64,000 nt of DNA. Origin: Persicimonas caeni (GTDB lineage Bacteria > Myxococcota_A > Bradymonadia > Bradymonadales > Bradymonadaceae). Location of the stretch: positions 186,001 through 250,000 of the forward strand of contig NZ_CP041186.1 of the NCBI RefSeq assembly GCF_006517175.1, given 5' to 3'. The position numbers were made by a program, and so were the translations under genes. Shown here piece after piece: positions 5,781 to 24,793 of this stretch; the stretch's first letter is position 1, and each line of letters begins with the position of its first letter. A model generated the notes under the pieces. It saw only the letters and a program-made list of their open reading frames with translations. It had not been told where the DNA came from and did no database searches.

Positions 5781-6347
5781 TTACTCCGACGTCTGCGCAT
5801 GCACCGCCACGTCGATCGACGCGCAGTCATCGGCCGCCACCCACTCGTTGACCAGCTCGCCGGCGACCGTGGCCGTCGGGGCGTACGGGTTGTGGGCGAT
5901 GCTCACGAATAGCTCGTCGCCGCCGGTCTCGAGGCCCAGTTCGTAGTGATAGGTGCCGTACTGGTCCGGGGCGAGGCAGGCCTCGCCGGTCCACACGCCG
6001 TCGGTTTCCTGCAAGGGCACGCCCTCGGCGGTGTCGAGCGGGTAGAGGCTGCCGCGGAGCACGGCCTCTTCGACCTCGGCGGGGTTGCGGGGGGCGAAGG
6101 CGAACGTCACCGGGCAGCACTCGGCGCCGGTGTCCTGTCGGACCCGGTCTTCGCGGACGTAGGCGTCGCGCTCGGGCGGCGCGTCGTAGCCGGCGTCGCC
6201 CGATGGACCGCCCAACGTGGGCAGGTTGCGCTCCGGATTGTCCGGCGGGGTGACCGGCTTCTGGGAATCGTCCGGCGAGTCGTCGCCGCATGCGACTGCG
6301 CCGACGAGGAGCACCAAGACAATGCTACTGCTTACAAATCGTCTCAT
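5781..6347 (-). CDS. Small lipoprotein, last gene of surface-protein operon
   Basis: The product is 188 aa. The signal peptide MRRFVSSSIVLVLLVGAVAC is followed by a Ser/Asp/Pro linker, and Cys20 is the lipobox Cys. AGGAGA lies 9 bases upstream, overlapping the end of the previous gene, so it is translated from the same message. The mature domain of about 120 aa begins after a CC pair. It has an immunoglobulin-like or carbohydrate-binding beta pattern: VTFAFAPRNPAEVEEAVLRG, then a 'DGVWTGEACLAPDQYGTYHYEL' region, resembling isoamylase/CBM48-like folds. That similarity is a guess from strand pattern. It is probably part of the same envelope complex as its three upstream genes. Confidence 0.83.
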   Translation of the reverse strand: MRRFVSSSIVLVLLVGAVACGDDSPDDSQKPVTPPDNPERNLPTLGGPSGDAGYDAPPERDAYVREDRVRQDTGAECCPVTFAFAPRNPAEVEEAVLRGSLYPLDTAEGVPLQETDGVWTGEACLAPDQYGTYHYELGLETGGDELFVSIAHNPYAPTATVAGELVNEWVAADDCASIDVAVHAQTSE

Positions 6348-6361
6348 GGAACCGTGTCTCC

Positions 6362-8431
6362 TCATCGGGCCGTCTCTCCTGCGCCGCTGTCGAACGCGGG
6401 AAGCGGAATATCGCCGGGGGTCGTCTTGTCGCCAGTCGGGCCGGCCTCGCTCGAATGGGCGTTCAAGCGTTGCGCCACCTCGAGATAGATCTGATCGCGA
6501 CGCTCGGGCTCGATATGCTCGTGCATCATGCGGTGCAAGCCGGTCTTTTGCTCGAACTCGTACGGCAAGAGCTCGGCGAAGGCGTCCTCGATGCCCAGCT
6601 CGTCGTTCTCCATCTGGGCTTTGGCTCGGCCGAGCAGCCTGATGAGCGACTTGCGGGTGATCGGACCGGGCTTTTTGCGCAGGTCGCGCACCGCGTACTC
6701 GAGCACCTCGCGGCTGGTCATCTCGCGCGCGTCGAAGGTCTGCAGCTCGACGGTGTGCCACAGCTTGCGCAACACGTTGGCGTCGGTCTCCTTGGCCAGC
6801 CAGCGCGCCGTGAAGTCGGCCGTGGCCGCCGGCGGCATACGTCGAAACACGATCGCAGCCACCTCCCGTACACGCGGGTCGGCGTGCTCCGGGATATGGG
6901 CGACCAGTCGAAGCGAGTCCGGCTCGCCCACGTTGGCGAGCGCGCCGAAGACGGGCCGCTGGTACGCCGCGCTCTTGCCGCGCACCTCTTCGAGGAGCGT
7001 GGCGATCTGGCTGAGCGCAGCCTGCTTGATATCTTGGTCGTGCGGCTTGCGCCCCGACATCGCTCCCAGCGCCAGCAACGACTGGCGAGCCATGACGCGC
7101 TCGCCCTTGGTCTTGCCGCTGGCTAGCGCGTTCGACCGCCCGCTCAGGTAGCTCGCAAGCTCCACGCCCACGTCGGAGCGGTCGATAAGGGCGAGCACCG
7201 CCCGGCTGCGCTCGATGGTGGGCGCGTTCTCGTCGCGCATCACGCCCTCCAGCGCCGCCTTGGCCTGCGGGGTGCGCGCGTTGCCGAGCGCGATATAGGC
7301 GCCCATGGTCGCCTCCGCGGGCAACTCGCCGCGCTTCATTTTGTCGATGACCGCGTTGGCGGCTTCGGGCTTGGCCTCCAGGAAGGTCCGCAGCGGAGGC
7401 CACGTATCCTTGATGCCGACCTCGTCGCTCGTGGCACGGGCGACGTATTGATCGACGGCCTGGTCGACCGTCAGCTTGCGCGCCTCGGCCAGCGCGGCGA
7501 GCTCGGCCTTGCTCGGAGGCTGACGCTCTTGGAGCGGAATCATCTGGGGCAAGAGGTCGGCCCACACATAGGCCGACTCCGCCGTGGGCGCGTCGTCTAA
7601 CGTTGTCACGTCGTCGTCGGCGTAGGTCGCCCGCGTCGTGTGCTGCACCCGAGAGTGAGCGCCTTCGTACGAGGCTCGCGCCTCGAGGCTTTCGAACCAG
7701 GCGACGTCTCCGGGAACGACGAGTTGGTGGCTGTCGGTGACCCTTGCCACCGAGCCCGCACCCTGCGTCCACGGCTCGAAGGAGGTGATCGCCTGAGCGA
7801 GCGCGGGCTCGCCATTTTTCTGTGTCTGGGTCACGGTGGCCACGAACGAGCCGTTGGCGCCACGACCTCCGAGAGAGCCCTTGCCGTCGGCCGGCCACAG
7901 CCAGCCAAGCTCGTGCACCAGCGCTTGCTGCACGCGAGCGTAGCCTGCGTCCATGCCCTTTCGATGGGCAAAGCCGTCGATCCCGCAGTCCGGGCCCACG
8001 CGCACCAAGAACGGCGCACGAAGCTCGGCGTCCTCGACGATGGTATCCGCCTCGATGCTGGCGAAGCGGCCCAGTAAGACGCTCCCTTCCGGGTCGGTCG
8101 ACAGCGCCCGCAGCTCCAGGCGCGCCCGGGTGGTCGCGCGCAGGTCGGTGCCCGCCTGCACCGGCACGTTCACGCCGAGACCGCTCAGATCGAGATCGGC
8201 CTTATCCTCGCTCACCAGGTCGTAGGCGAGTTGGACGCCCGGCGTAAAAGCACACCCGCGAGCACGCTCGCCCGACGCTCGAACACCTTCTACCAGATGG
8301 GCATGCTCGGCGCGCTCGACGGCCGCGTCGGACTGCGTCGAGGGCGCTGCGTAGTAGAGCCACGCGCCCGCCCCACCCACACAGGCGACGCCGGCCACGG
8401 CCAGGAGCCATTTGGTCTGTATCGTCATCAT
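6362..8431 (-). CDS. Secreted or membrane-anchored protein: lipid-transport (vitellogenin-N)-like region plus HEAT-like helices
   Basis: The product is 689 aa. The start ATG at 8431 overlaps the upstream stop (ATGA), which implies translational coupling. Residues about 8-28 are a hydrophobic anchor or signal. Residues about 45-260 are beta-rich, with 'PGVQLAYDLVSEDKADLDL', long alternating strands and a 'LRAPFLVRVGPDCGIDGF' segment. In order and spacing this recalls the N-terminal domain of eukaryotic large lipid-transfer proteins. Residues about 320-670 are paired helices with 'P.A.AALEG.M', 'LALGAMSG' and 'LARHIPEHADPRVREVAA'-style HEAT features, as in the helical part of vitellogenin. Similarity is by eye and unproven; a plain HEAT-repeat protein is the alternative. 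It sits between lectin-like and small lipoproteins. Confidence 0.8.
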   Translation of the reverse strand: MMTIQTKWLLAVAGVACVGGAGAWLYYAAPSTQSDAAVERAEHAHLVEGVRASGERARGCAFTPGVQLAYDLVSEDKADLDLSGLGVNVPVQAGTDLRATTRARLELRALSTDPEGSVLLGRFASIEADTIVEDAELRAPFLVRVGPDCGIDGFAHRKGMDAGYARVQQALVHELGWLWPADGKGSLGGRGANGSFVATVTQTQKNGEPALAQAITSFEPWTQGAGSVARVTDSHQLVVPGDVAWFESLEARASYEGAHSRVQHTTRATYADDDVTTLDDAPTAESAYVWADLLPQMIPLQERQPPSKAELAALAEARKLTVDQAVDQYVARATSDEVGIKDTWPPLRTFLEAKPEAANAVIDKMKRGELPAEATMGAYIALGNARTPQAKAALEGVMRDENAPTIERSRAVLALIDRSDVGVELASYLSGRSNALASGKTKGERVMARQSLLALGAMSGRKPHDQDIKQAALSQIATLLEEVRGKSAAYQRPVFGALANVGEPDSLRLVAHIPEHADPRVREVAAIVFRRMPPAATADFTARWLAKETDANVLRKLWHTVELQTFDAREMTSREVLEYAVRDLRKKPGPITRKSLIRLLGRAKAQMENDELGIEDAFAELLPYEFEQKTGLHRMMHEHIEPERRDQIYLEVAQRLNAHSSEAGPTGDKTTPGDIPLPAFDSGAGETAR

Positions 8432-11400
8432 TCCAAGCTCTCGAAAATGGGTGTATCGACGTCGTAAAGCTTCCCTTCGGCGGCGGTGATCCCGTCGTAG
8501 GTCAACAGATTCCACTTGATGGAGAACCACAAGAAGTTGACCGCGGCGTCCACCGAGCCCGTAAAGAGCTTGAGCGCCCAGGGCACCGAAATATTGGTGT
8601 TGCCGCGGCGGCTAAACGGCTCGGCTTCGCCGTCTCGGTACAGCCAGTGGTAGATATTTTCGTAGACCGGCCCGATATTGAACGAGACGACGTTGAAGCC
8701 TGCCCCCAGGCAAAAGCCGGGGTTGTCGCTCGGCACGCAGCCGGTCAGGTTGAAGCCGGCGGCCGCGCCCATCTTGAGCGCCAGTTGCCAGCGGAAGAAG
8801 CGCTCCTTGGCGGCCGCGTCGAAGGTGCACAGGTAGGGCTTCTGGTAGTTCACGCCCAGCCGGCGCAGCGTCCCGTCGGGCATGTAACTCACCGCGCTGG
8901 CGTTCGGGTAGCTGGTGCTCAAGCCCGACTGAGTAGCGTTGTAGATGGCGTCGGAGTCGTACGTCGGCGCGGCTTCTGCGTCGTTGGACGCGAAGGCCAC
9001 TGAATTCGACATCCAGCGATACTCGGTCTCGCTGCCCGTGAGGCATTCCGACCGGGTGAAGTTCGTCGCGCACTGGGGCTCGGGGTATTGGTAGGCGAGT
9101 TGAGCGCCCAGCCAGACCTCGTCGCCGCCGCGCTTTGCGTCGACCGCGTTCGCCTCGGCCTGGCTACTCAGCTCGGCGAGCCGACCGCCCTGCACGTTGC
9201 AGTTGCGCGCAGCCTCGCGGAACCCGGCCGGCTCGTCGACCTTCACCACACACGAGTCGGTGCCGATGCACGGATATTTCTGGTCCTCCTCGGGGCCGAA
9301 TTGCAACTGCGCCTCGACCTCGACCGACGCGCCCACGGTGAAGGTGAACGTCACCAACACCGGCACCGGGCCGATCTGCCAGCGCCACTTGTAGCCCCAG
9401 CCGACGCCCAAGCCCATCTGGCCGCCGTAGCGTCCGGTCGTCCATTCGGTCGACGGGTTGCCCTGGTTGGCCCGCTCGAGCGCACTCTTGATGTCGTCCC
9501 ACGGCGGCGCCAGCGTGATCTTGACCGGCGTGGAGGACGCTGTGGACGAATCGGCTGGGAAAGGGACCGACGAGCTCTCCGGGTCCATCGGGTCGATGAG
9601 TTGGAAGCCGAGCATCTCGGCGGTCATGCTCGTGCTGACCTCCTGGCCCGGGTTGCGGCTCAGTTGGTTCTCGAGGTCATAGGTCGACCGGCCGCTCTCC
9701 CCGTCGGTGCGGTTGCCGCCGTTGACCGTCTCCACGCAGTTGTCTTTGGCCTGCCCCTGGCAGTTGATCTCGGTGTCGTTGTCGTTGCTACCCGACATCT
9801 TCGCGTTGCCGGTCTTGGTGTTCTTTGAGCTGCCGCTAAATCCGGTCGTCGCGATCGGCTCGAGCGGGGTGACGAAGCGGTCGAGATTGACCTGCAGCAC
9901 GCCCTCTGAGACCCGACAGCCGCGCAAGGTCTTACCGAAGACTTTGCGGGCATTCTCGGCGGCCGTCTCAGTGTCTACTTCTAGCGAGTACGCCGTGTGG
10001 TAGGTTTCGGGAGAATCCCAGTCCGGCGAGGAGGGGTCGGGGACGTATTCGCTGAGCGTGTAGTTCGGGGTGAGTTGCCGGGTGCAGTAGTCGCGATTGG
10101 GACAGGAATAATATTCGGTTCCCTGACGCGTCACGAAGGCGTCGCCGTCGTACTCGGGCCGGTCGTCCGACTCGATGCAATACAGCAGGCTGAACAGGCG
10201 CGAGTCTCCAGTGATGCGTACTCCCGACCCAAACGCAGTGAAGTAGCCTTTGATTTTCTCGGTGATCGGCAGATTCACCGACTGGGTCGTCCCCTCGGGA
10301 CTCGGGCCCTCCAGCGGAACCTCGCCGAGCTTGTAGTGGAACAACTTCGAGGTGTCCCACGTGGCCTGTTTCGGAACGATGTAGACGGAGGCTCGCAGAT
10401 TCTTGGGCCCGTAATTGGCCGTCGGTGACGATTGGCCGTCCTCCCAGGCCCCGCCGATCTCGACGTCTTCGGCCCAGGGGTTGAACGGGTTTTCCTCGTT
10501 GAGGTTCGCCACCGACCAGCTCAGGTCGACGGGCAGGCTGGCGTTTAGGTTCGACTCGGTGCGAATGGTCAGATCCGAGCGCGCCTCGATGTCGCCGGGC
10601 ATGATATACGCGCGGCGGCCGACGTCGGGCTCGACAAAGTGGATATCGAGCCGCTTGGCGAATTCGCGCTGCTCGTAAAAGGCGATCAGATCATAGGTCC
10701 CGCTGGCGGCGTCGAAGAAGAAGTCCTGCGGGTTCGGCACGCATTCGGGAGTATGACTGGCGAGGTAATCGGCGCCGATGCGTTGCGGGTTGACGTCGAC
10801 CTTGTGCCAGGCCGCCTGTCCTTCCATGTCGTAGGAGGCGCGCAACGCCGAGTTGAAGTAGTCATATTGCTGGCGAAACTCGCTCACCGACAGCCCCAGC
10901 TTTTTGGCGGCGTTGTCCTCGGAGACGCTCCTTCCATCGGCGCAATCCTGGGCGATGGGCCCTTGGTATTCGATGGTGAAGCGTTGCTCCTCGCCGACGG
11001 TCTCGGCCTCGTCGGGAACGATGTCGCGCTTGAACGCCACGCACCGAAAGCCCTGCACGAGCTTTTTGGTCTCTTTGTGCTCGTACTCGTCGCTGACCCA
11101 GACGACCACGCTCGAGGTCGGCGGCACGATCCCCCAGCCAAATTTGGTCCACAGTCTGATGGTGTAGGGCATCCCCGGATAGATGGGAATGCCCGGCCCG
11201 AAACCGCCGCCATCATGAATGTCGGGATGCGGCCGGGTATCGACGTCCACGCCTCGCAAAACGTTGACATTTCGCTGCGTCTGGGCGTCGTAGTGCGGGA
11301 CGACATAGTCAAATTCTTGGTTCCCTCGGCGGGGACTGTACAGGGTGTACGTATCGAAGCCGCCCCACATGGCCACGTCCGTGGCGCTGGGGTTCTCGAC

Positions 11401-11970
11401 ACACTCCATGTCTAGGTTGCGCCGCGCGCGGCCGTGGCACTGGCGAGGAATACACGCGGTGCGGGTTTCGACCTCGATGGCCTCCTCGGCCGGCTGCGCG
11501 CAGGTCATCTCGACGGTGCTACCGGTGGCGGTGTAGGTCTTCTGGGTGCCGTCGTCGTTCGTGTCGCCGGCGCCGCAGGTGTAGGTTACCTCGAAGTCTT
11601 GCGCGCAGCTCGTCGAGTAGCGACACGTTAACGAGCCTGCGCACTCGTTGCGCAGCTGGTTGATCTCAGCGCTGTCGTTGGCGCCACAGGTGGCCGACTG
11701 GATCTCGATGGCGTAACGCTCCGTGATCCGCACGGTCGCACTGTCCCCGGCACGGCTGGCGTACTCCTCGGAGTTGGGTTCGAGCGACTCGGCAAAACGC
11801 CAGCCGACCTCGCCCTCGGGGCAGTCGATCGACTCGTCGAGCCCCAGGCGCGTGGTCGGACTGGAGTCGTCCGGCGCCGGGTCGTTCACGCACCCGGCGA
11901 GCCCTGCGCTCAACGCCGCGCCCAAGAGAATATACAAATATTGTCGTCGCATCTTACGTCCTGTGTTCAT
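8428..11970 (-). CDS. Large lipoprotein with lectin-like N- and C-terminal regions
   Basis: The product is about 1180 aa. The ATG at 11970 overlaps the upstream stop as ATGA; an internal ATG at 11952 has AGGA upstream and is the alternative. A signal peptide ends in GLAGC. Residues about 85-140 contain CGANDSAEI...CAGSLTCRYSTSC...VTYTCG, a Cys pattern resembling SUEL-type galactose-binding lectins. Residues about 905-1050 look like a C-type lectin fold: FREAARNCNVQGGRLAELSS, WLGAQ, YRWM and a terminal PYLCTF. The middle 700 residues are beta-rich with long tyrosine-rich segments and a Gly/Trp-rich patch (GVGWGYKWRWQIGPVP). Carbohydrate binding is inferred from these two regions. The stop couples to the HEAT gene. 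Confidence 0.82.
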   Translation of the reverse strand: MNTGRKMRRQYLYILLGAALSAGLAGCVNDPAPDDSSPTTRLGLDESIDCPEGEVGWRFAESLEPNSEEYASRAGDSATVRITERYAIEIQSATCGANDSAEINQLRNECAGSLTCRYSTSCAQDFEVTYTCGAGDTNDDGTQKTYTATGSTVEMTCAQPAEEAIEVETRTACIPRQCHGRARRNLDMECVENPSATDVAMWGGFDTYTLYSPRRGNQEFDYVVPHYDAQTQRNVNVLRGVDVDTRPHPDIHDGGGFGPGIPIYPGMPYTIRLWTKFGWGIVPPTSSVVVWVSDEYEHKETKKLVQGFRCVAFKRDIVPDEAETVGEEQRFTIEYQGPIAQDCADGRSVSEDNAAKKLGLSVSEFRQQYDYFNSALRASYDMEGQAAWHKVDVNPQRIGADYLASHTPECVPNPQDFFFDAASGTYDLIAFYEQREFAKRLDIHFVEPDVGRRAYIMPGDIEARSDLTIRTESNLNASLPVDLSWSVANLNEENPFNPWAEDVEIGGAWEDGQSSPTANYGPKNLRASVYIVPKQATWDTSKLFHYKLGEVPLEGPSPEGTTQSVNLPITEKIKGYFTAFGSGVRITGDSRLFSLLYCIESDDRPEYDGDAFVTRQGTEYYSCPNRDYCTRQLTPNYTLSEYVPDPSSPDWDSPETYHTAYSLEVDTETAAENARKVFGKTLRGCRVSEGVLQVNLDRFVTPLEPIATTGFSGSSKNTKTGNAKMSGSNDNDTEINCQGQAKDNCVETVNGGNRTDGESGRSTYDLENQLSRNPGQEVSTSMTAEMLGFQLIDPMDPESSSVPFPADSSTASSTPVKITLAPPWDDIKSALERANQGNPSTEWTTGRYGGQMGLGVGWGYKWRWQIGPVPVLVTFTFTVGASVEVEAQLQFGPEEDQKYPCIGTDSCVVKVDEPAGFREAARNCNVQGGRLAELSSQAEANAVDAKRGGDEVWLGAQLAYQYPEPQCATNFTRSECLTGSETEYRWMSNSVAFASNDAEAAPTYDSDAIYNATQSGLSTSYPNASAVSYMPDGTLRRLGVNYQKPYLCTFDAAAKERFFRWQLALKMGAAAGFNLTGCVPSDNPGFCLGAGFNVVSFNIGPVYENIYHWLYRDGEAEPFSRRGNTNISVPWALKLFTGSVDAAVNFLWFSIKWNLLTYDGITAAEGKLYDVDTPIFESLE

Positions 11971-14900
11971 GGCGCCACGCACCGCAACACTACACATCCA
12001 TCACCGCCGGCGTTGAAACCGGAGCCCAGTTGATTCGAACCGGCCCCCACCGAGCCCGAGCTAATGCCCTGGCACAGCGAGTAGTCGGGCGCCGAAGTAT
12101 TCGCAGGCACGCCGTCGAGGCCGTCGGCCGTGCTGAACCCCGTGGGATACGTCCCGTAGGTTCCCGCGGCGCCGGCGTTATTCGGACCGACGGACACACC
12201 GCCCACCTCGCCCGCACCACCGCCGGCCTCGCCGGAGGCGACGAAGGCGTCTTCGCCGTTCGAGTCGGTCGCCCCGCCGCCCGAGCCGGCCGCGACGTCG
12301 TCGCCGCGGCCAAACTCGGTGCCGCCGCCTCCGGCGGGCACGACGAACGAAGCCGACGTGCTGCCGCTGACCTGTACGCTGGTCAGCCCGCCGCCACCGC
12401 CACCACCGCCGGTGAACGAGTCGCCGTCGCCCAGGCCGCCGCGGGTGTCGACGCCATATTTGGAGCCGATGCCCGGCGTGCCGCCGAAGTCGTAGACGAC
12501 GCCGAAGTCTCCGCCCTGGCCGACCCATACGTCGATGACGTCGCCCTGGCTGACGCTGAGCGTGCCACTGACGTAGCCGCCCGCACCGCCCGGAGTGCCT
12601 CCGGTGCCGGGCCCGGGGCCGCTCGCGCCGTTGCCGGAGCCGCCGGCGGCGCCCCAGGCCTGTACGTAGACCTGTGAGCATTGGGCGGGCACGGTGAACG
12701 ACCCGCTGACGGTGGTGCCGTCGGTGGTGGGCTGATCGACGACGAGCTTGCCCGCCCCGCAAGTGCCCGTGTTGCCCGCGCAGTTGCCCGAGCTTGCGCC
12801 ACACTCGCAGTTGCTGGTCGAGCAATCCGTGTCGAGCGTACACGCCGAGCCCGCGCCGCAGCCGCCGCAAGACGAGCCGCCGCAGTCGACGCCGGTCTCG
12901 TCGCCATTCTGGATGCCGTCGCTGCACGAGGCTGCGCACGTGCCGCCCGAGCAGTTGCCTCCGGCACAATCACCGTCGGCGTTGCAGCTGTCTCCAATCG
13001 CGCACGTATTCGAGCACACCCCGCCGCAATCAGTGTCTGATTCGTCCTGGTTTTGCACGCCGTCCGAGCAGGTCGCCGTGGCGCACACATTGTTCAGGCA
13101 ATAATTCGAGGTGCAGTCGCTGGCCGTCGAGCAGACTTGCCCATCAGCGCACCCGCCGCACGTCAGCCCCCCGCAGTCGACGTCGCTTTCGTCCTGGTTC
13201 AGGATGGTGTCGTCACAGGTCGGCGTGGCGCAGACGTCGTTGAGGCAATAATTCGAGGCGCAATCACCGGCGACGGTGCAGGCTTGCCCGTCGGTGCATC
13301 CACTGCAGTTCGACCCACCACAGTCGACGTCGGTCTCGTCCTGGTTTTGGAGCCCGTCATCGCACGTGGCCGATTGGCAGGTGCCGCTGACACACTGCGT
13401 GCTGCTCACGCAATCACTGTCTGTGTAGCATTGCTGGTTCTCCGCGCAGGGGCTACACACGCCGCCACAGTCGACGTCGGATTCGTCCTGGTTCTCGACG
13501 GTGTCCGAGCACGTGGCCGTCTCCGTCCACACACACAGCACCGTGATGTAGCGCCTGTTGTTCCGTCCGCTATCGCCGAACATGACCGAACAATCATAGC
13601 TGCCCATTTGACCGGGGTTGTAGGGATCCTCGACTGCACTCAGCGGCTGCTTGATGACCTCAGCGCTCCACGAGTCGGAAAAGGTCCCCAACGCCTTGTT
13701 GCCGGAGTCCCCACTCATCGTGAACTCCGAAGACACGCCATCTTTGACCAATGCCACCGTCACGGGGTCGTCGTCCGGCACGGGGGCGAGATCAAATTGA
13801 TACTGAAAATCTGCGATGAGGGAGTAGGTCCCCTCTGGCGGGCATTCGACGTCGATGATGCCACGCACCTCCTGGTCGTCGTCCGCGGTGATCCCGGTAT
13901 AGTGCTCGGTGAGGTCGGCGACACATTTCCCGGCGTCGTCGACCTGATATTTATACGACGCTCCAATCACGAACTGCTCGGGCGCCTCCGGCGTGTCTGA
14001 CTGCATCCGGAACCTGTGCTTCACTCCGTCGAGACGGTAGCGGATGGTGACGCCTTCTTGTGGAAGCCGGTCGACGTTGACCACAATCGGTTGTCCAATC
14101 CGGCAGCGCCCGTCGATGCAATGGCCGGTGTCGCAGTCGGACGGTGCGACACACGCCGGGGTCGTGCGCTGATCGACGGTCGCCTCGCAAGGTCCGCACA
14201 GGCTCCCGCCGCAGTCGACGTCAGTCTCCTCGCCGTTCTTGGCGCCGTCGCGACACTGATTGGAACGGCAGATCCGGTTCTCGCCCTCCCCGTAGCAGGT
14301 GCCGCCCTCGCAATCCTCATCCACCTCACATCCTTTCCCTTCCGCGCAGGGCTCGCACTCGCCGCCGCAGTCGACATCGGTCTCGAAGCCGGCGTCGAGC
14401 ACGCCGTTGGCACAAATGCCGCCGGTGACGTCGTCGGCGTTCTCGACCGCGATCCTGCCATCGGCCGGGTCGACGGTGGTCTTCGAGGTTCCGCCATTGG
14501 ATTTGAAGGTCGCCGACTCGCGGGTGTCATTGCTGCCATCGGAGTCGACCCGTCGGACCGATACCGAGACCTCCTTTCCCTCGGGCAGATTCTCCACTTC
14601 GATGACCGACTCGCCATCTTCGTTGGTCGTGACCTTGACGGTGACGTCCGTGTCCGGGTCGCCGGAGCCTTCTACCTCCACCGTAACCGAGTAAAACACA
14701 CCATCCTCGCCTGACTGCGTGGAGATGGCGACGCCATTGCCAGAACCCGACTTGTACGTAGTCGAGCCCCCTTCACGGAAGGTCACTTCGTCCTTAGACA
14801 CATCGCCTTCCGGGTAGGCCGTGGTGGTGTAGTTGGGTCCGGTCCCGGTGATCCAGTCGAGGTTGCCGTCTGCGGGCGACCTGCCGCTACGCCCGCTTCC

Positions 14901-16019
14901 GCTTCCGACACCCTGGTTGGTCCGCACCTCGCCCTCGGCGTAGATCTCGATGGGGTCGCCGGGTTCGGGGGTCTCAACACCCTGCTTGATGAGCGTCTGG
15001 TTGATGATCGGCACGTTGGCGCCACAGCGCGGGCAGGCCGAGAAGCCCGGCACCACCCGGTTGCCGTCGGCCTCGAGCACCTCGCCGTCACGGATGCCGG
15101 TCTCTCGATCGCCGCGCGTGGCGACCACCGAGATCGACGAGTAGTTGATGGTGAACACACCCGAGTCGGGTGCGAACGGCGCCTTCAACTCGCCCAGGCG
15201 GTCCTCGACGGCCGAGAAATATAGCAGGTTGCCGTTCTCCGGGGTGCCCTCGTAGATGATGGGCTCGTCGTTATCGATCGACGGAATCTCGTAGCGCCAG
15301 GTATTGGCGACCGGGTTGATCTCGATGCGGCGTTCTTTGTCCGGAAAGTTGTTGTCGTAGATGCGCAGCCAGTAAACGTCGCCCTCGCCTTTGTAGTAGC
15401 CGATGGGCGTGACCGCGTGACCGCGCGCAAAGCCGGTCTCGGTGCGCTGGGCGATGGCGAGTCGGTAGTGCTTGTCGCTGTCGGGCTGGAGCGCCTTGGC
15501 CAAGAAGTGAAGGACGTCTTTGGCCGCATAGCGCACGTCGCCTTCGACCGCCGAGGGGACCGCCTGGGTTGCCGCCCAGTAGGCGAGCTCTTGTTGGAGC
15601 GCCGGGTTGCCGAAGAGCCGCAGGTCGGCGACCGTCTCACCGCCAAAATCCCGCGGGTCGAGCTCGCCTGCATGGAAGAGCAACGAGGTGACCGCGAAGC
15701 CCTCGCTTCGCCCCTCGTTCAAGGTGCCGTTGGTCGCGTTCATCCAGCCTTCGGCGACCGGGTTGAGCTCGCAGGGCAGCTCCCCGCCCAAACACACGTT
15801 CTCGGCGCCGAACATGCGCGCCACCAAGCTCGGAGTGAGCTGTGGGCCGGCCGACGCGCCCCCGAAATTCTCGAAGACGAAGGCGTCTTCCAAAAAGACG
15901 AAGCCCGAGTCGACCTGCCGCGGCACTTGCTTGGAAGAATCCGGGGAGGAGGAACAGGAGAGACCGGCTACAGCCAACGCGAAGGTCAGCAGACCGCGAA
16001 TCCAAGCAGACTTCCACAT
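11967..16019 (-). CDS. Giant secreted protein: papain-like pseudoenzyme region, seven DVDCGG Cys repeats, glycine-rich domain
   Basis: The product is 1350 aa, first gene of the operon. Signal peptide with Cys22 (AGLSC). Residues about 90-245 resemble a papain-like cysteine-peptidase fold seen in secreted bacterial proteins: GRSEGFAVTSLLF, then GHAVTPIGYY (His201) and RIYDNNFP (Asp222/Asn223). The expected nucleophile Cys is Ser105, so it may be inactive. Residues about 535-640 and 835-1095 hold seven copies of a Cys repeat with core DVDCGG, known from myxobacterial surface proteins, often flanked by NQDES. Residues 1110-1350 are a glycine-rich domain (GGGGGG, GSGNG, PAGGGG) like that of ALK/LTK-type receptors. 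It starts without an obvious ribosome-binding site. Confidence 0.85.
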   Translation of the reverse strand: MWKSAWIRGLLTFALAVAGLSCSSSPDSSKQVPRQVDSGFVFLEDAFVFENFGGASAGPQLTPSLVARMFGAENVCLGGELPCELNPVAEGWMNATNGTLNEGRSEGFAVTSLLFHAGELDPRDFGGETVADLRLFGNPALQQELAYWAATQAVPSAVEGDVRYAAKDVLHFLAKALQPDSDKHYRLAIAQRTETGFARGHAVTPIGYYKGEGDVYWLRIYDNNFPDKERRIEINPVANTWRYEIPSIDNDEPIIYEGTPENGNLLYFSAVEDRLGELKAPFAPDSGVFTINYSSISVVATRGDRETGIRDGEVLEADGNRVVPGFSACPRCGANVPIINQTLIKQGVETPEPGDPIEIYAEGEVRTNQGVGSGSGRSGRSPADGNLDWITGTGPNYTTTAYPEGDVSKDEVTFREGGSTTYKSGSGNGVAISTQSGEDGVFYSVTVEVEGSGDPDTDVTVKVTTNEDGESVIEVENLPEGKEVSVSVRRVDSDGSNDTRESATFKSNGGTSKTTVDPADGRIAVENADDVTGGICANGVLDAGFETDVDCGGECEPCAEGKGCEVDEDCEGGTCYGEGENRICRSNQCRDGAKNGEETDVDCGGSLCGPCEATVDQRTTPACVAPSDCDTGHCIDGRCRIGQPIVVNVDRLPQEGVTIRYRLDGVKHRFRMQSDTPEAPEQFVIGASYKYQVDDAGKCVADLTEHYTGITADDDQEVRGIIDVECPPEGTYSLIADFQYQFDLAPVPDDDPVTVALVKDGVSSEFTMSGDSGNKALGTFSDSWSAEVIKQPLSAVEDPYNPGQMGSYDCSVMFGDSGRNNRRYITVLCVWTETATCSDTVENQDESDVDCGGVCSPCAENQQCYTDSDCVSSTQCVSGTCQSATCDDGLQNQDETDVDCGGSNCSGCTDGQACTVAGDCASNYCLNDVCATPTCDDTILNQDESDVDCGGLTCGGCADGQVCSTASDCTSNYCLNNVCATATCSDGVQNQDESDTDCGGVCSNTCAIGDSCNADGDCAGGNCSGGTCAASCSDGIQNGDETGVDCGGSSCGGCGAGSACTLDTDCSTSNCECGASSGNCAGNTGTCGAGKLVVDQPTTDGTTVSGSFTVPAQCSQVYVQAWGAAGGSGNGASGPGPGTGGTPGGAGGYVSGTLSVSQGDVIDVWVGQGGDFGVVYDFGGTPGIGSKYGVDTRGGLGDGDSFTGGGGGGGGLTSVQVSGSTSASFVVPAGGGGTEFGRGDDVAAGSGGGATDSNGEDAFVASGEAGGGAGEVGGVSVGPNNAGAAGTYGTYPTGFSTADGLDGVPANTSAPDYSLCQGISSGSVGAGSNQLGSGFNAGGDGCVVLRCVAP

Positions 16020-23242: not shown

Positions 23243-24469
23243 TTACGGGCGCGCAGTTTGCGGGGTGACGCAGTGGAGCCCGTCGGCTCCGATATGGTCG
23301 CCCTCGAGGCGAGAGAGGATGCGCACCGGCCCCATAAAGACCTCCAGGTGGTCGACGCCCTCGTCCAGCGACCGCTGGATGTCGTCCTCGTAGCGCCACG
23401 TCCCGTGGTACATCCCCAATTTGAGCATCGCGCCGTAGGGGTGGTCCTTGTTCTCCGGGTTCTCGAAGGTGTTCCCGCCGGCGCTGCTATAGTACTTCTG
23501 GCCGTTGATCCAAAACTCGGTCAGCCCCTCGCCGCCGCTCTCGGTGTCCCAGACGGTGTGCAGCACGAAGTCGTACCACTGGCCGGCCTCGGGTTTGACG
23601 TCGGTGATGGCGACCTCCCCGTCCATGCCGTCATCGGGAAAGAGGCGGTGCAAGACGAACTCGTCGCAGTCGCCCCCGGCGCAGCGCCCCTGCGGGTAGT
23701 CCGGATACTCCCTCGGGTTCCACACCCGCAGGTCGAGCGGGGCGGCGCCGTGGCCCACGTGGGCCTGCATGAACTTGGTGCTGGCGGTGTCTCCGGCCAC
23801 GAAATCGGGCGGATAATAATACGACCAACTGATCCACTCCTCGCTTTTGAGCGGCTTGTCCGGCGCCCACGAGACGGTGTCGCCGGTGTGAAACTCGTAC
23901 GACTCGTAGATCTCGGCGCGCAGGTTGCCCGCGTGGGAGGTCGAGTCGGGCGGCGACGGATTGCGCGGGTCGATGTAGAACCGCAGGCTCTTGGTGCCCG
24001 GCTCGCGCAGCCGGTCCTCGGCGCTCACCACCGAAATCGACTCCGGGTCGTGCTCGATATTCGTGCCCCAATGATGGTCGGAGAAGTAACTCCCCTCGAT
24101 GACCCCGTCGTCCAGGTCCGTCCAGTCGTACACCCGCAAGCCGCGGCAATCCGGCGGGTCACTCGCGTCGGGCTCCTCACAGCCGGGCCCGCCGTCGACG
24201 CAGTCGGAGACGTCGGCCTGGGCACACCCGTCGCCTTCACACCCCGTGTCGACGGCCGTGTCGGACACGTCCTGCGCCGCCGCATCTTGCGGGGCGACGT
24301 CGCCCCCCGAGTCCTCGGCGACATCCGACACATCCGCGCCGGCTGCATCGAGGCCGCCCTCGCGCGCCTCGTCTGCGTCGCACGACATCGCGCCTCCGGC
24401 CAACAAGCCCAACCCCAAACACACCATCGACACCTGCCGACGAACACGTTGCGAACCAAAAACAGACAT
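23243..24469 (-). CDS. Lipoprotein with polysaccharide-lyase-like domain
   Basis: The product is 408 aa. GGGAGG lies 7 bases before the ATG at 24469. The signal peptide ends at a Cys (GGAMSC). A linker of about 75 residues rich in Asp, Ala, Val and Ser, with Cys pairs (DTGCEGDGCAQADVSDC), follows. The catalytic-like domain spans about 125-395. It contains 'KSLRFYIDP', 'GNLRAEIYES', 'WISWSYYYPPDF', 'KFMQAHVGHGAAPLDLRV', 'GQWYDFVLHTVWDTE' and 'EFWINGQKYYSSAGGN'. This is the jelly-roll pattern of the heparin-lyase-like Polysacc_lyase family, which cleaves acidic polysaccharides. Substrate and activity are not shown. It would act on the outer surface or in the periplasm. Confidence 0.85.
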   Translation of the reverse strand: MSVFGSQRVRRQVSMVCLGLGLLAGGAMSCDADEAREGGLDAAGADVSDVAEDSGGDVAPQDAAAQDVSDTAVDTGCEGDGCAQADVSDCVDGGPGCEEPDASDPPDCRGLRVYDWTDLDDGVIEGSYFSDHHWGTNIEHDPESISVVSAEDRLREPGTKSLRFYIDPRNPSPPDSTSHAGNLRAEIYESYEFHTGDTVSWAPDKPLKSEEWISWSYYYPPDFVAGDTASTKFMQAHVGHGAAPLDLRVWNPREYPDYPQGRCAGGDCDEFVLHRLFPDDGMDGEVAITDVKPEAGQWYDFVLHTVWDTESGGEGLTEFWINGQKYYSSAGGNTFENPENKDHPYGAMLKLGMYHGTWRYEDDIQRSLDEGVDHLEVFMGPVRILSRLEGDHIGADGLHCVTPQTARP

Positions 24470-24604
24470 ATGCAATCCTCCCAAATCAAAGCCATTCGAA
24501 GTTCGTGCAGCATAGCGCGAAGGCGCGAAGGCGTGAAGGTTGATACAACGCGCCTCCGCGGCAACAATTCGAGAGACGCGGTTCTGTAACCTAGGAGGTA
24601 TCCC

Positions 24605-24793
24605 GTGAACAAAATCCTTCTCATCATTGTCACCATCTTGCTGCCCCCGCTCGGGGTCTTCCTCAAGGTCGGGCTGGGCAATCACTTTTGGCTCAATCTG
24701 ATCCTGACCATCCTCGGCTACATCCCCGGGATTATTCATGGCCTCTGGATCGTCGCGCTCGACGGCGCGCGGCCTGCATCCGCGACGAGCTAA
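24605..24793 (+). CDS. YqaE/Pmp3-family membrane peptide
   Basis: The product is 62 aa with a GTG start at 24605 and AGGAGG 6 bases upstream. It has two transmembrane helices joined by a short loop. The family signature is clear: 'LLPPLGVFLKVGLGNHFWLNL' in helix 1 and loop, then 'LTILGYIPGIIHGLWIV'. Pmp3/YqaE proteins sit in the cytoplasmic membrane and are linked to salt and membrane-potential stress. The length is typical. It is followed immediately by repeat cluster B. Confidence 0.93.
   Translation: MNKILLIIVTILLPPLGVFLKVGLGNHFWLNLILTILGYIPGIIHGLWIVALDGARPASATS

What the first reader, a model, noticed from the sequence alone, without database searches (positions are those of the whole stretch)
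5781..16019. Four-gene translationally coupled surface module combining a giant Cys-repeat/glycine-rich protein, a lectin-like lipoprotein, a lipid-transfer-like HEAT protein and a small lipoprotein
Seen: three genes overlap or abut by ATGA at 11970 and 8431, and the fourth has its ribosome-binding site in the end of the third. All four products carry a signal or lipid anchor. Known: the Cys repeat with DVDCGG, glycine-rich ALK-type domains and C-type lectins are extracellular interaction domains. Inference: they form one outer-surface complex for capturing a ligand such as a lipid or glycan. The combination of eukaryote-like domains in one operon is not something I recognise.
Basis: partly seen in the sequence, partly recalled or inferred. 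Interest (0 to 1): 0.75.

Follow-up and report, generated by a model that had tools for sequence, protein, structure and literature searches.

The report
Bacterial operon with yolk-protein-like subunit
A predatory marine bacterium carries a conserved four-gene unit in which one protein is predicted to fold like the front half of the proteins that load lipid into animal egg yolk and blood lipoproteins, next to a protein with animal-type lectin domains; this hints at a bacterial lipid-handling machine that still has to be tested.

Summary
The four genes are real, co-oriented and coupled, and form one conserved unit. A-B-C-D is complete in six genomes including the window's; A-B-C, cut by a contig end, is in a seventh. 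A C start overlapping B's stop by 1 or 4 nt is available in 9 of 9 operons.

C (8431-6362): AlphaFold pLDDT 83.9. Its ten best Foldseek PDB matches are all large lipid transfer proteins (MTP, lipovitellin, vitellogenin, apoB; E from 1.4e-12). It has the barrel and helical horseshoe but not the lipid-cavity sheets.

B (11970-8428): a C-type lectin fold (Z 15.8) without EPN/QPD/WND motifs (0 of 12). A relative carries a SUEL lectin domain.

A (16019-11967): the conserved core is an undescribed N-terminal domain with papain-like Cys/His/Asn motifs, Cys replaced by Ser in the clade that includes this genome. The Cys-repeat/Gly-rich tail is not core.

D: a small putative lipoprotein.

Most likely an envelope lipid-handling complex; lipid binding and the complex are inferred.

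The parts
11967..16019 (-). Gene A, 1350 aa, putative lipoprotein: papain-like-motif head, Cys repeats, Gly-rich C-terminus
15150..15914 (-). A head domain (about residues 36-290); Ser105 in place of the Cys of most relatives, His201, Asp222/Asn224
   Evidence: fold not tested
12795..13517 (-). A main Cys-repeat stretch (residues 835-1075); two further repeats at residues 548 and 600
11979..12713 (-). A glycine-rich domain (residues 1103-1347), Gly_rich_2-like, E 0.022
8428..11970 (-). Gene B, 1180 aa, putative lipoprotein with lectin-type modules; ATGA overlap with A
11575..11724 (-). B N-terminal Cys module (about residues 83-132), aligned with the Labilithrix SUEL lectin region but not itself recognised by Pfam
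8812..9282 (-). B C-type lectin-like domain (residues 897-1053), inserted in a beta domain
8437..9555 (-). B long-strand beta domain around the lectin insert (residues 806-896 and 1054-1178)
6362..8431 (-). Gene C, 689 aa, LLTP-N-module-like protein with an N-terminal hydrophobic segment; ATGA overlap with B
7532..8254 (-). C beta barrel with inner helix (about residues 60-300)
6446..7510 (-). C helical horseshoe, HEAT-like (residues 308-662)
5781..6347 (-). Gene D, 188 aa putative lipoprotein (start could be 6365)

Best explanation
A-B-C-D is one translationally coupled operon for an exported, envelope-attached protein assembly that handles lipid. C is its core: a bacterial relative of the N-terminal module (beta barrel plus helical horseshoe) of animal large lipid transfer proteins (supported by predicted structure and profile links). 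B is a putative lipoprotein with SUEL-like and C-type-lectin-like recognition domains on a long-strand beta domain (supported by profile and predicted structure); it probably docks on C and recognises lipid-bearing material such as membranes or glycolipids (inferred). A offers an altered papain-like head on a Cys-rich, Gly-rich stalk, and D is an accessory lipoprotein (sequence shown, roles inferred). The likeliest use is to take up or move prey-derived lipid at the cell envelope (inferred).
For: Fold of C: ten best Foldseek PDB matches all MTP, lipovitellin, vitellogenin or apoB; lipovitellin Z 15.9 over 507 residues. All 6 fetched Myxococcota proteins that exceed the Vitellogenin_N cut-off also match the C-family profile over most of its length. 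Lectin fold in B and SUEL lectin in a relative. Conserved order and overlaps. Lipid need: PMC7460792 (passages) reports that Bradymonabacteria lack FabB/F and FabI/L and carry many fadL; in this genome no FabF match exceeds the cut-off (over it in 9 of 14 controls) and six FadL-family matches do.
Against: No lipid binding, complex or location was shown. C lacks the sheets that line the lipid cavity in LLTPs. B's beta domain is clearly amphipathic in only 3 of 9 strands. The B C-terminal model is modest (pLDDT 65.6). Helical repeat proteins score as high as LLTPs by Z against C's helical part (best 16.4). B and C are missing in 18 of 21 genomes of the family, so the unit is not how the lineage generally obtains lipid.
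Confidence: 0.42

Rival explanations
1. Recognition and adhesion complex without lipid transfer: the LLTP-like barrel and HEAT horseshoe of C is only a protein-binding scaffold that assembles or presents the lectin lipoprotein B and the stalked protein A for prey contact or social recognition.
For: HEAT arrays commonly bind proteins (general knowledge); C has no cavity sheets; B has two lectin-type modules; A has a long Cys-rich, Gly-rich stalk.
Against: The Foldseek matches cover barrel plus horseshoe together and rank LLTPs ahead of other helical repeat proteins.
Confidence: 0.33
2. Assembly or maturation station for secreted surface proteins: the A head descends from a thiol peptidase (Cys form kept in Labilithrix) and C acts as a chaperone, as MTP does for apoB; in the window's clade the peptidase became a binding platform.
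For: Cys form in a complete Labilithrix operon and Ser form in one sister clade; a trypsin-family gene in the related arrangement of G205 and G063.
Against: No fold test of the A head; Pfam, NCBIfam and PDB profile searches empty. No substrate known.
Confidence: 0.17
3. Four functionally unrelated neighbours.
For: C relatives occur without detectable A or B in eight other Myxococcota loci examined, one of them only 4.3 kb long.
Against: The same order with 1-4 nt overlaps recurs in diverged genomes; D is strongly matched (E below 1e-15) only in genomes with A-B-C among 359 searched.
Confidence: 0.03

Closest known systems
Large lipid transfer protein superfamily (MTP, lipovitellin/vitellogenin, apoB), Pfam Vitellogenin_N PF01347
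   Same: C has the N-terminal barrel and helical horseshoe in the same order; bacterial relatives of C exceed the Pfam cut-off
   Different: No lipid-cavity sheets; 689 aa; bacterial; encoded with lectin-type and papain-like-motif partners; the window's own C is not matched by PF01347
C-type lectin-like domains (mannose-binding protein, CLEC receptors)
   Same: Fold of B residues 897-1053, Z 15.8 to mannose-binding protein-C
   Different: No EPN, QPD or WND motif in 12 of 12; inserted inside a long-strand beta domain
SUEL (D-galactoside/L-rhamnose-binding) lectins, PF02140
   Same: Labilithrix B has a full-length domain above cut-off (E 1.1e-7)
   Different: The window's B and two G005 copies are not recognised by the model
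Papain-like (clan CA) peptidases; Ser-for-Cys relatives such as SERA5 and silicatein (recalled, from no call)
   Same: Cys, His, Asn/Asp motifs in that order in the A-head family; Ser replaces Cys in one clade
   Different: No detectable match to Pfam, NCBIfam or PDB families; fold not tested

Membership tests
Large lipid transfer protein (LLTP) | N-terminal beta barrel with inner helix | tested here: met
   AlphaFold model residues 67-290, inner helix 162-173; apoB barrel 9bd8 Z 15.9 over 283 residues
Large lipid transfer protein (LLTP) | Helical horseshoe following the barrel | tested here: met
   Helices 308-662; lipovitellin 1lsh aligned over model 61-631, Z 15.9, rmsd 9.2
Large lipid transfer protein (LLTP) | Match to Vitellogenin_N PF01347 | tested here: inconclusive
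   Window's C: no match. Relatives: 9 of 18 at E up to 0.5, best 4.8e-5; 7 of 188 genomes above cut-off, no control genome rang, so no positive control; 6 of 6 fetched match the C profile
Large lipid transfer protein (LLTP) | C-terminal sheets that form the lipid cavity, in the same chain | tested here: not met
   C ends after the helical part; B could supply a sheet, untested. So C is a relative of the N-terminal module, not filed as an LLTP
Large lipid transfer protein (LLTP) | Lipid binding or transfer | not testable with these tools
   needs purified protein
C-type lectin domain | CTLD fold | tested here: met
   1bv4 Z 15.8, rmsd 2.1, 111 aligned; Lectin_C 8 of 12 members at E up to 0.5, best 7.7e-5, window's own 0.095
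C-type lectin domain | EPN or QPD and WND calcium/sugar motifs of sugar-binding members | tested here: not met
   0 of 12; a C-type-lectin-like fold, sugar binding not implied
SUEL lectin PF02140 | Match above the Pfam cut-off | tested here: inconclusive
   1 of 5 B N-termini above cut-off (L137), one below (L136), window's and two others no match
Papain-like peptidase | Catalytic Cys followed by His and Asn/Asp | tested here: not met
   Ser at the Cys position in the window's A; 27 of 35 family rows have Cys
Papain-like peptidase | Papain fold | not tested
ALK/LTK glycine-rich domain PF12810 | Match to PF12810 | tested here: inconclusive
   E 0.31, below cut-off; Gly_rich_2 fits better, 0.022 here and above cut-off in 2 of 4 relatives

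The most novel reading that the evidence does not exclude
B and C are the two halves of a split bacterial lipid transfer particle: C supplies the barrel and horseshoe of an animal-type LLTP, B supplies the long-strand beta sheet and lectin-type targeting. Together with the pseudo-peptidase-like A and the lipoprotein D they form a dedicated machine, so far undescribed in bacteria, by which fatty-acid-deficient Myxococcota predators strip or accept lipid from prey membranes.
Probability: 0.17. Interest if true: 0.92.

Novelty: new variant of a known kind. Interest (0 to 1): 0.7.

Why it matters
LLTPs underlie yolk and blood lipoproteins, and the papers seen here discuss them in animals. A bacterial family with the same barrel-horseshoe module, in an operon with lectin-type partners, would offer a prokaryotic version. 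It would bear on where the superfamily came from and on how predators with incomplete fatty-acid synthesis obtain lipid. The locus also defines two undescribed families (the A head and D) and a Cys-to-Ser switch inside an otherwise conserved operon.

Tried and rejected
Lectin_C searched in the own genome found nothing at E 0.001 and rang in no control, so it was uninformative; the fold test settled it. phmmer of A and B against the PDB gave nothing; for C it gave only T-cell-receptor chains at E 0.036 and worse, discarded as chance. The C profile against PDB sequences found HEAT arrays and similar, no LLTP; LLTPs appear only by fold. The A-head profile found nothing credible in PDB, Pfam or NCBIfam, and the Peptidase_C39_2 comparison is no confirmation.

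A lipid-lined sheet in B was tested by face hydrophobicity: 3 of 9 strands positive, 6 not. No LLTP is among the 50 rows shown for the B model, which lectin domains fill; that says nothing about the beta domain. The genes called B-like in G205 and G063 were so called by eye; the B profile does not match them. Promoter-like and terminator-like sites were no more frequent than in shuffles.

Rows seen but left out of the 35-row A-head alignment and tree: L104 and the second L144 copy (Cys), L145 (gap at that place), L106 (also Ser there, but His and YDNN lost: a degenerate copy), L107 and L109 (partial), and duplicates of the same place. One of the eight Ser rows (L118, second G049 copy) is split over two frames in its assembly.

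Literature: searches listed no paper on bacterial LLTPs (listings only). A table in PMC4060292 (passage) already lists both lipovitellin SCOP superfamilies as shared by bacteria and eukaryotes, so bacterial occurrence as such is not new. Preprints and most subscription papers are not in that library.

Full report
Where it is. The window lies in a genome of 8,047,206 bases in one contig. A table in PMC11509652 gives 8,047,206 for Persicimonas caeni YN101, a predatory bradymonabacterium (passages; its text prints 8,047,306), so the window is very probably from that strain. Nearby genes with Pfam matches (YebC/TACO1, a sodium/calcium exchanger, a CNNM/CorC protein, an outer-membrane beta-barrel protein) give no functional hint.

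Four minus-strand genes lie at 16019-5781 as described, with ATGA overlaps at 11970 and 8431. D has a GAGGAG in the end of C before the 6347 ATG; an alternative ATGA start lies at 6365.

B and C occur in the same 3 of 26 genomes of the order. The order A-B-C-D is complete in the window, G009 (Lujinxingiaceae MAG), G005 contig C21 (uncultured Myxococcales MAG), G194 (Deltaproteobacteria MAG HCUG1432-5) and two Labilithrix MAGs. Partial runs lie at contig ends: G005 C11 (end of A, B, C, D), C100 (A, B), C732 (end of A, B), C347 (C, D) and C51 (A); G049 C213 (A, B, C) and C71 (B, C). In G049 a D match sits at the start of another contig. The tool labels these genomes as at least three families (f1, f3, f17), besides Labilithrix. 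G005 holds B N-termini on four contigs, hence at least four copies if the MAG is clean. A C start overlapping B's stop by 1 or 4 nt is available in 9 of 9 junctions and a 4-nt C-D overlap in 8 of 8; A-B offers a 4-nt overlap in 5 of 8 and is 14-28 nt apart in 3 of 8. Starts are candidates, not mapped ends.

Distribution in the phylum sample at E up to 0.001: A head 23 of 377 genomes; B 41 of 377 (below 1e-100 in 7, the rest short and mostly in the lectin part); C 36 of 377 (below 1e-70 in 5, many of the rest in the HEAT part); D 14 of 359 (below 1e-15 in 5). The five genomes with strong C and the five with strong D are the same: the window's, G009, G005, G049 and G194. Some of these supplied the profiles, so this describes distribution and is not an independent discovery. 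The unit is patchy: 18 of 21 genomes of the window's family, the window's included in the 21, lack B and C.

C is related to the N-terminal module of animal large lipid transfer proteins. Pfam on the window's C gives HEAT_2 below cut-off. Among 18 aligned relatives HEAT_2 is seen in 18 and Vitellogenin_N in 9 at E up to 0.5, best 4.8e-5. AlphaFold2 with 18 sequences gave pLDDT 83.9 and pTM 0.66: strands between residues 67 and 290 with a helix at 162-173, then helices from 308 to 662. Foldseek's first ten PDB matches are all MTP, lipovitellin, honey bee vitellogenin or apoB (1.4e-12 to 1.8e-6); the next are unrelated helical repeats from 3.0e-4. VIA-align gives lipovitellin Z 15.9 (rmsd 9.2, 507 residues) and the apoB barrel Z 15.9 (rmsd 6.1, 283 residues). 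Helical repeat proteins head that list at Z 16.4 and fill most of it, but over the helical part. TM-scores over the whole chain are low (0.28-0.38 for the ten), so the arrangement of barrel and horseshoe is not well tested. Vitellogenin_N is above its cut-off in 7 of 188 Myxococcota genomes and rang in 0 of 14 control genomes, so there was no positive control. Six of the seven were fetched, and all 6 match the C-family profile over most of its length (2.2e-11 to 4.8e-40); they were not used to build it. No A or B match lies in the eight loci fetched there. Two Cys residues of C (60 and 149) are kept in 16 of 17 and 16 of 18 rows. C has no cavity sheets, so it is not filed as an LLTP proper.

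B carries lectin-type modules. Its C-terminal 491 residues were predicted at pLDDT 65.6 and pTM 0.60, with 136 residues under 50, mainly the first 116. The lectin part matches mannose-binding protein-C at Z 15.8, rmsd 2.1 over 111 residues; Foldseek's best E is 2.4e-4. Lectin_C is seen in 8 of 12 members at E up to 0.5, best 7.7e-5, and 0.095 in the window's own. None of 12 has EPN, QPD or WND. The lectin domain sits inside a domain of long predicted strands (up to 26 residues), of which 3 of 9 are clearly amphipathic. Of five B N-termini scanned, Labilithrix L137 has SUEL lectin above cut-off (1.1e-7) and L136 below it (1.7e-5); the window's and two G005 copies have none.

A has a conserved head and a variable tail. 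In relatives, which reach Acidobacteria, Chloroflexi and Actinomycetales, the head shows G-C-E-G, G-H-A and Y-D-N-N motifs. The Cys is Ser in 8 of 35 rows: the window's, G009, three G005 copies, G194 and two G049 copies. They form one clade (support 100/99, one change, 0 of 500 shuffles as low), next to Labilithrix, which keeps Cys in a complete A-B-C-D operon. A further Ser copy, L106, was left out as degenerate. That the head is a papain fold is inferred from motif order; database tests were empty or weak. The tail here has seven DVDCGG-type repeats and a Gly_rich_2-like domain; the scanned Labilithrix A has DUF1554 and sub-threshold endostatin matches instead. In G205 and G063 the order is C, a large gene in B's place that the B profile does not match, a trypsin-family gene, then A.

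Mechanism. The best-supported view is an exported lipid-handling assembly: C as core, B as recognition partner, A and D as accessory lipoproteins. Supported by sequence or predicted structure: the domains, the coupling and the conservation. Inferred: the complex, its location and lipid as ligand. PMC7460792 (passages) reports that Bradymonabacteria lack FabB/F and FabI/L, have many fadL copies and may incorporate prey fatty acids. In this genome no FabF match exceeds the model's cut-off, the best lying in a 3096-residue open frame, while 9 of 14 controls exceed it; six FadL-family matches exceed theirs. That makes lipid uptake plausible, but most relatives lack the operon, so it is at most one route. 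The main rival is a recognition scaffold that uses the same fold without lipid.

Novelty. Searches listed no paper on bacterial LLTP-like operons. PMC4060292 already tabulates lipovitellin superfamilies as shared by bacteria and eukaryotes, and Pfam recognises some bacterial members. What appears new is the structure-level link, the conserved four-gene unit with lectin-type partners, and the Cys-to-Ser clade.

Noticed in passing
L119:10159-11439 (G063) and L120:2033-3058 (G205): Trypsin-family genes (E 6.1e-11 and 3.4e-15) lie between C-side genes and the A gene, a related but rearranged version of the operon.
   Followed up: partly
L201:9235-14427 (G129): A 1731-residue protein with Laminin_G_3 domains ends 3 bases before a Vitellogenin_N-like gene, another lectin-type gene beside an LLTP-like one.
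   Followed up: no
L054:6486-10547 (G008): A-like protein with the same Cys-repeat and Gly-rich C-terminus (Gly_rich_2 5e-8) but without the A head.
   Followed up: no
G005 contigs C11, C21, C51, C100, C347, C732: One MAG carries several diverged copies of the operon, an expansion not seen in the other genomes examined, apart from two or three pieces in G049.
   Followed up: partly
window 23243-24739, minus strand: Polysaccharide lyase match (PF14099, E 2.3e-16), with no evident link to the operon.
   Followed up: no
G000:C1:841123-843666 and four other places: Six FadL-family outer-membrane fatty-acid transporter matches in the window's genome, two of them adjacent.
   Followed up: no
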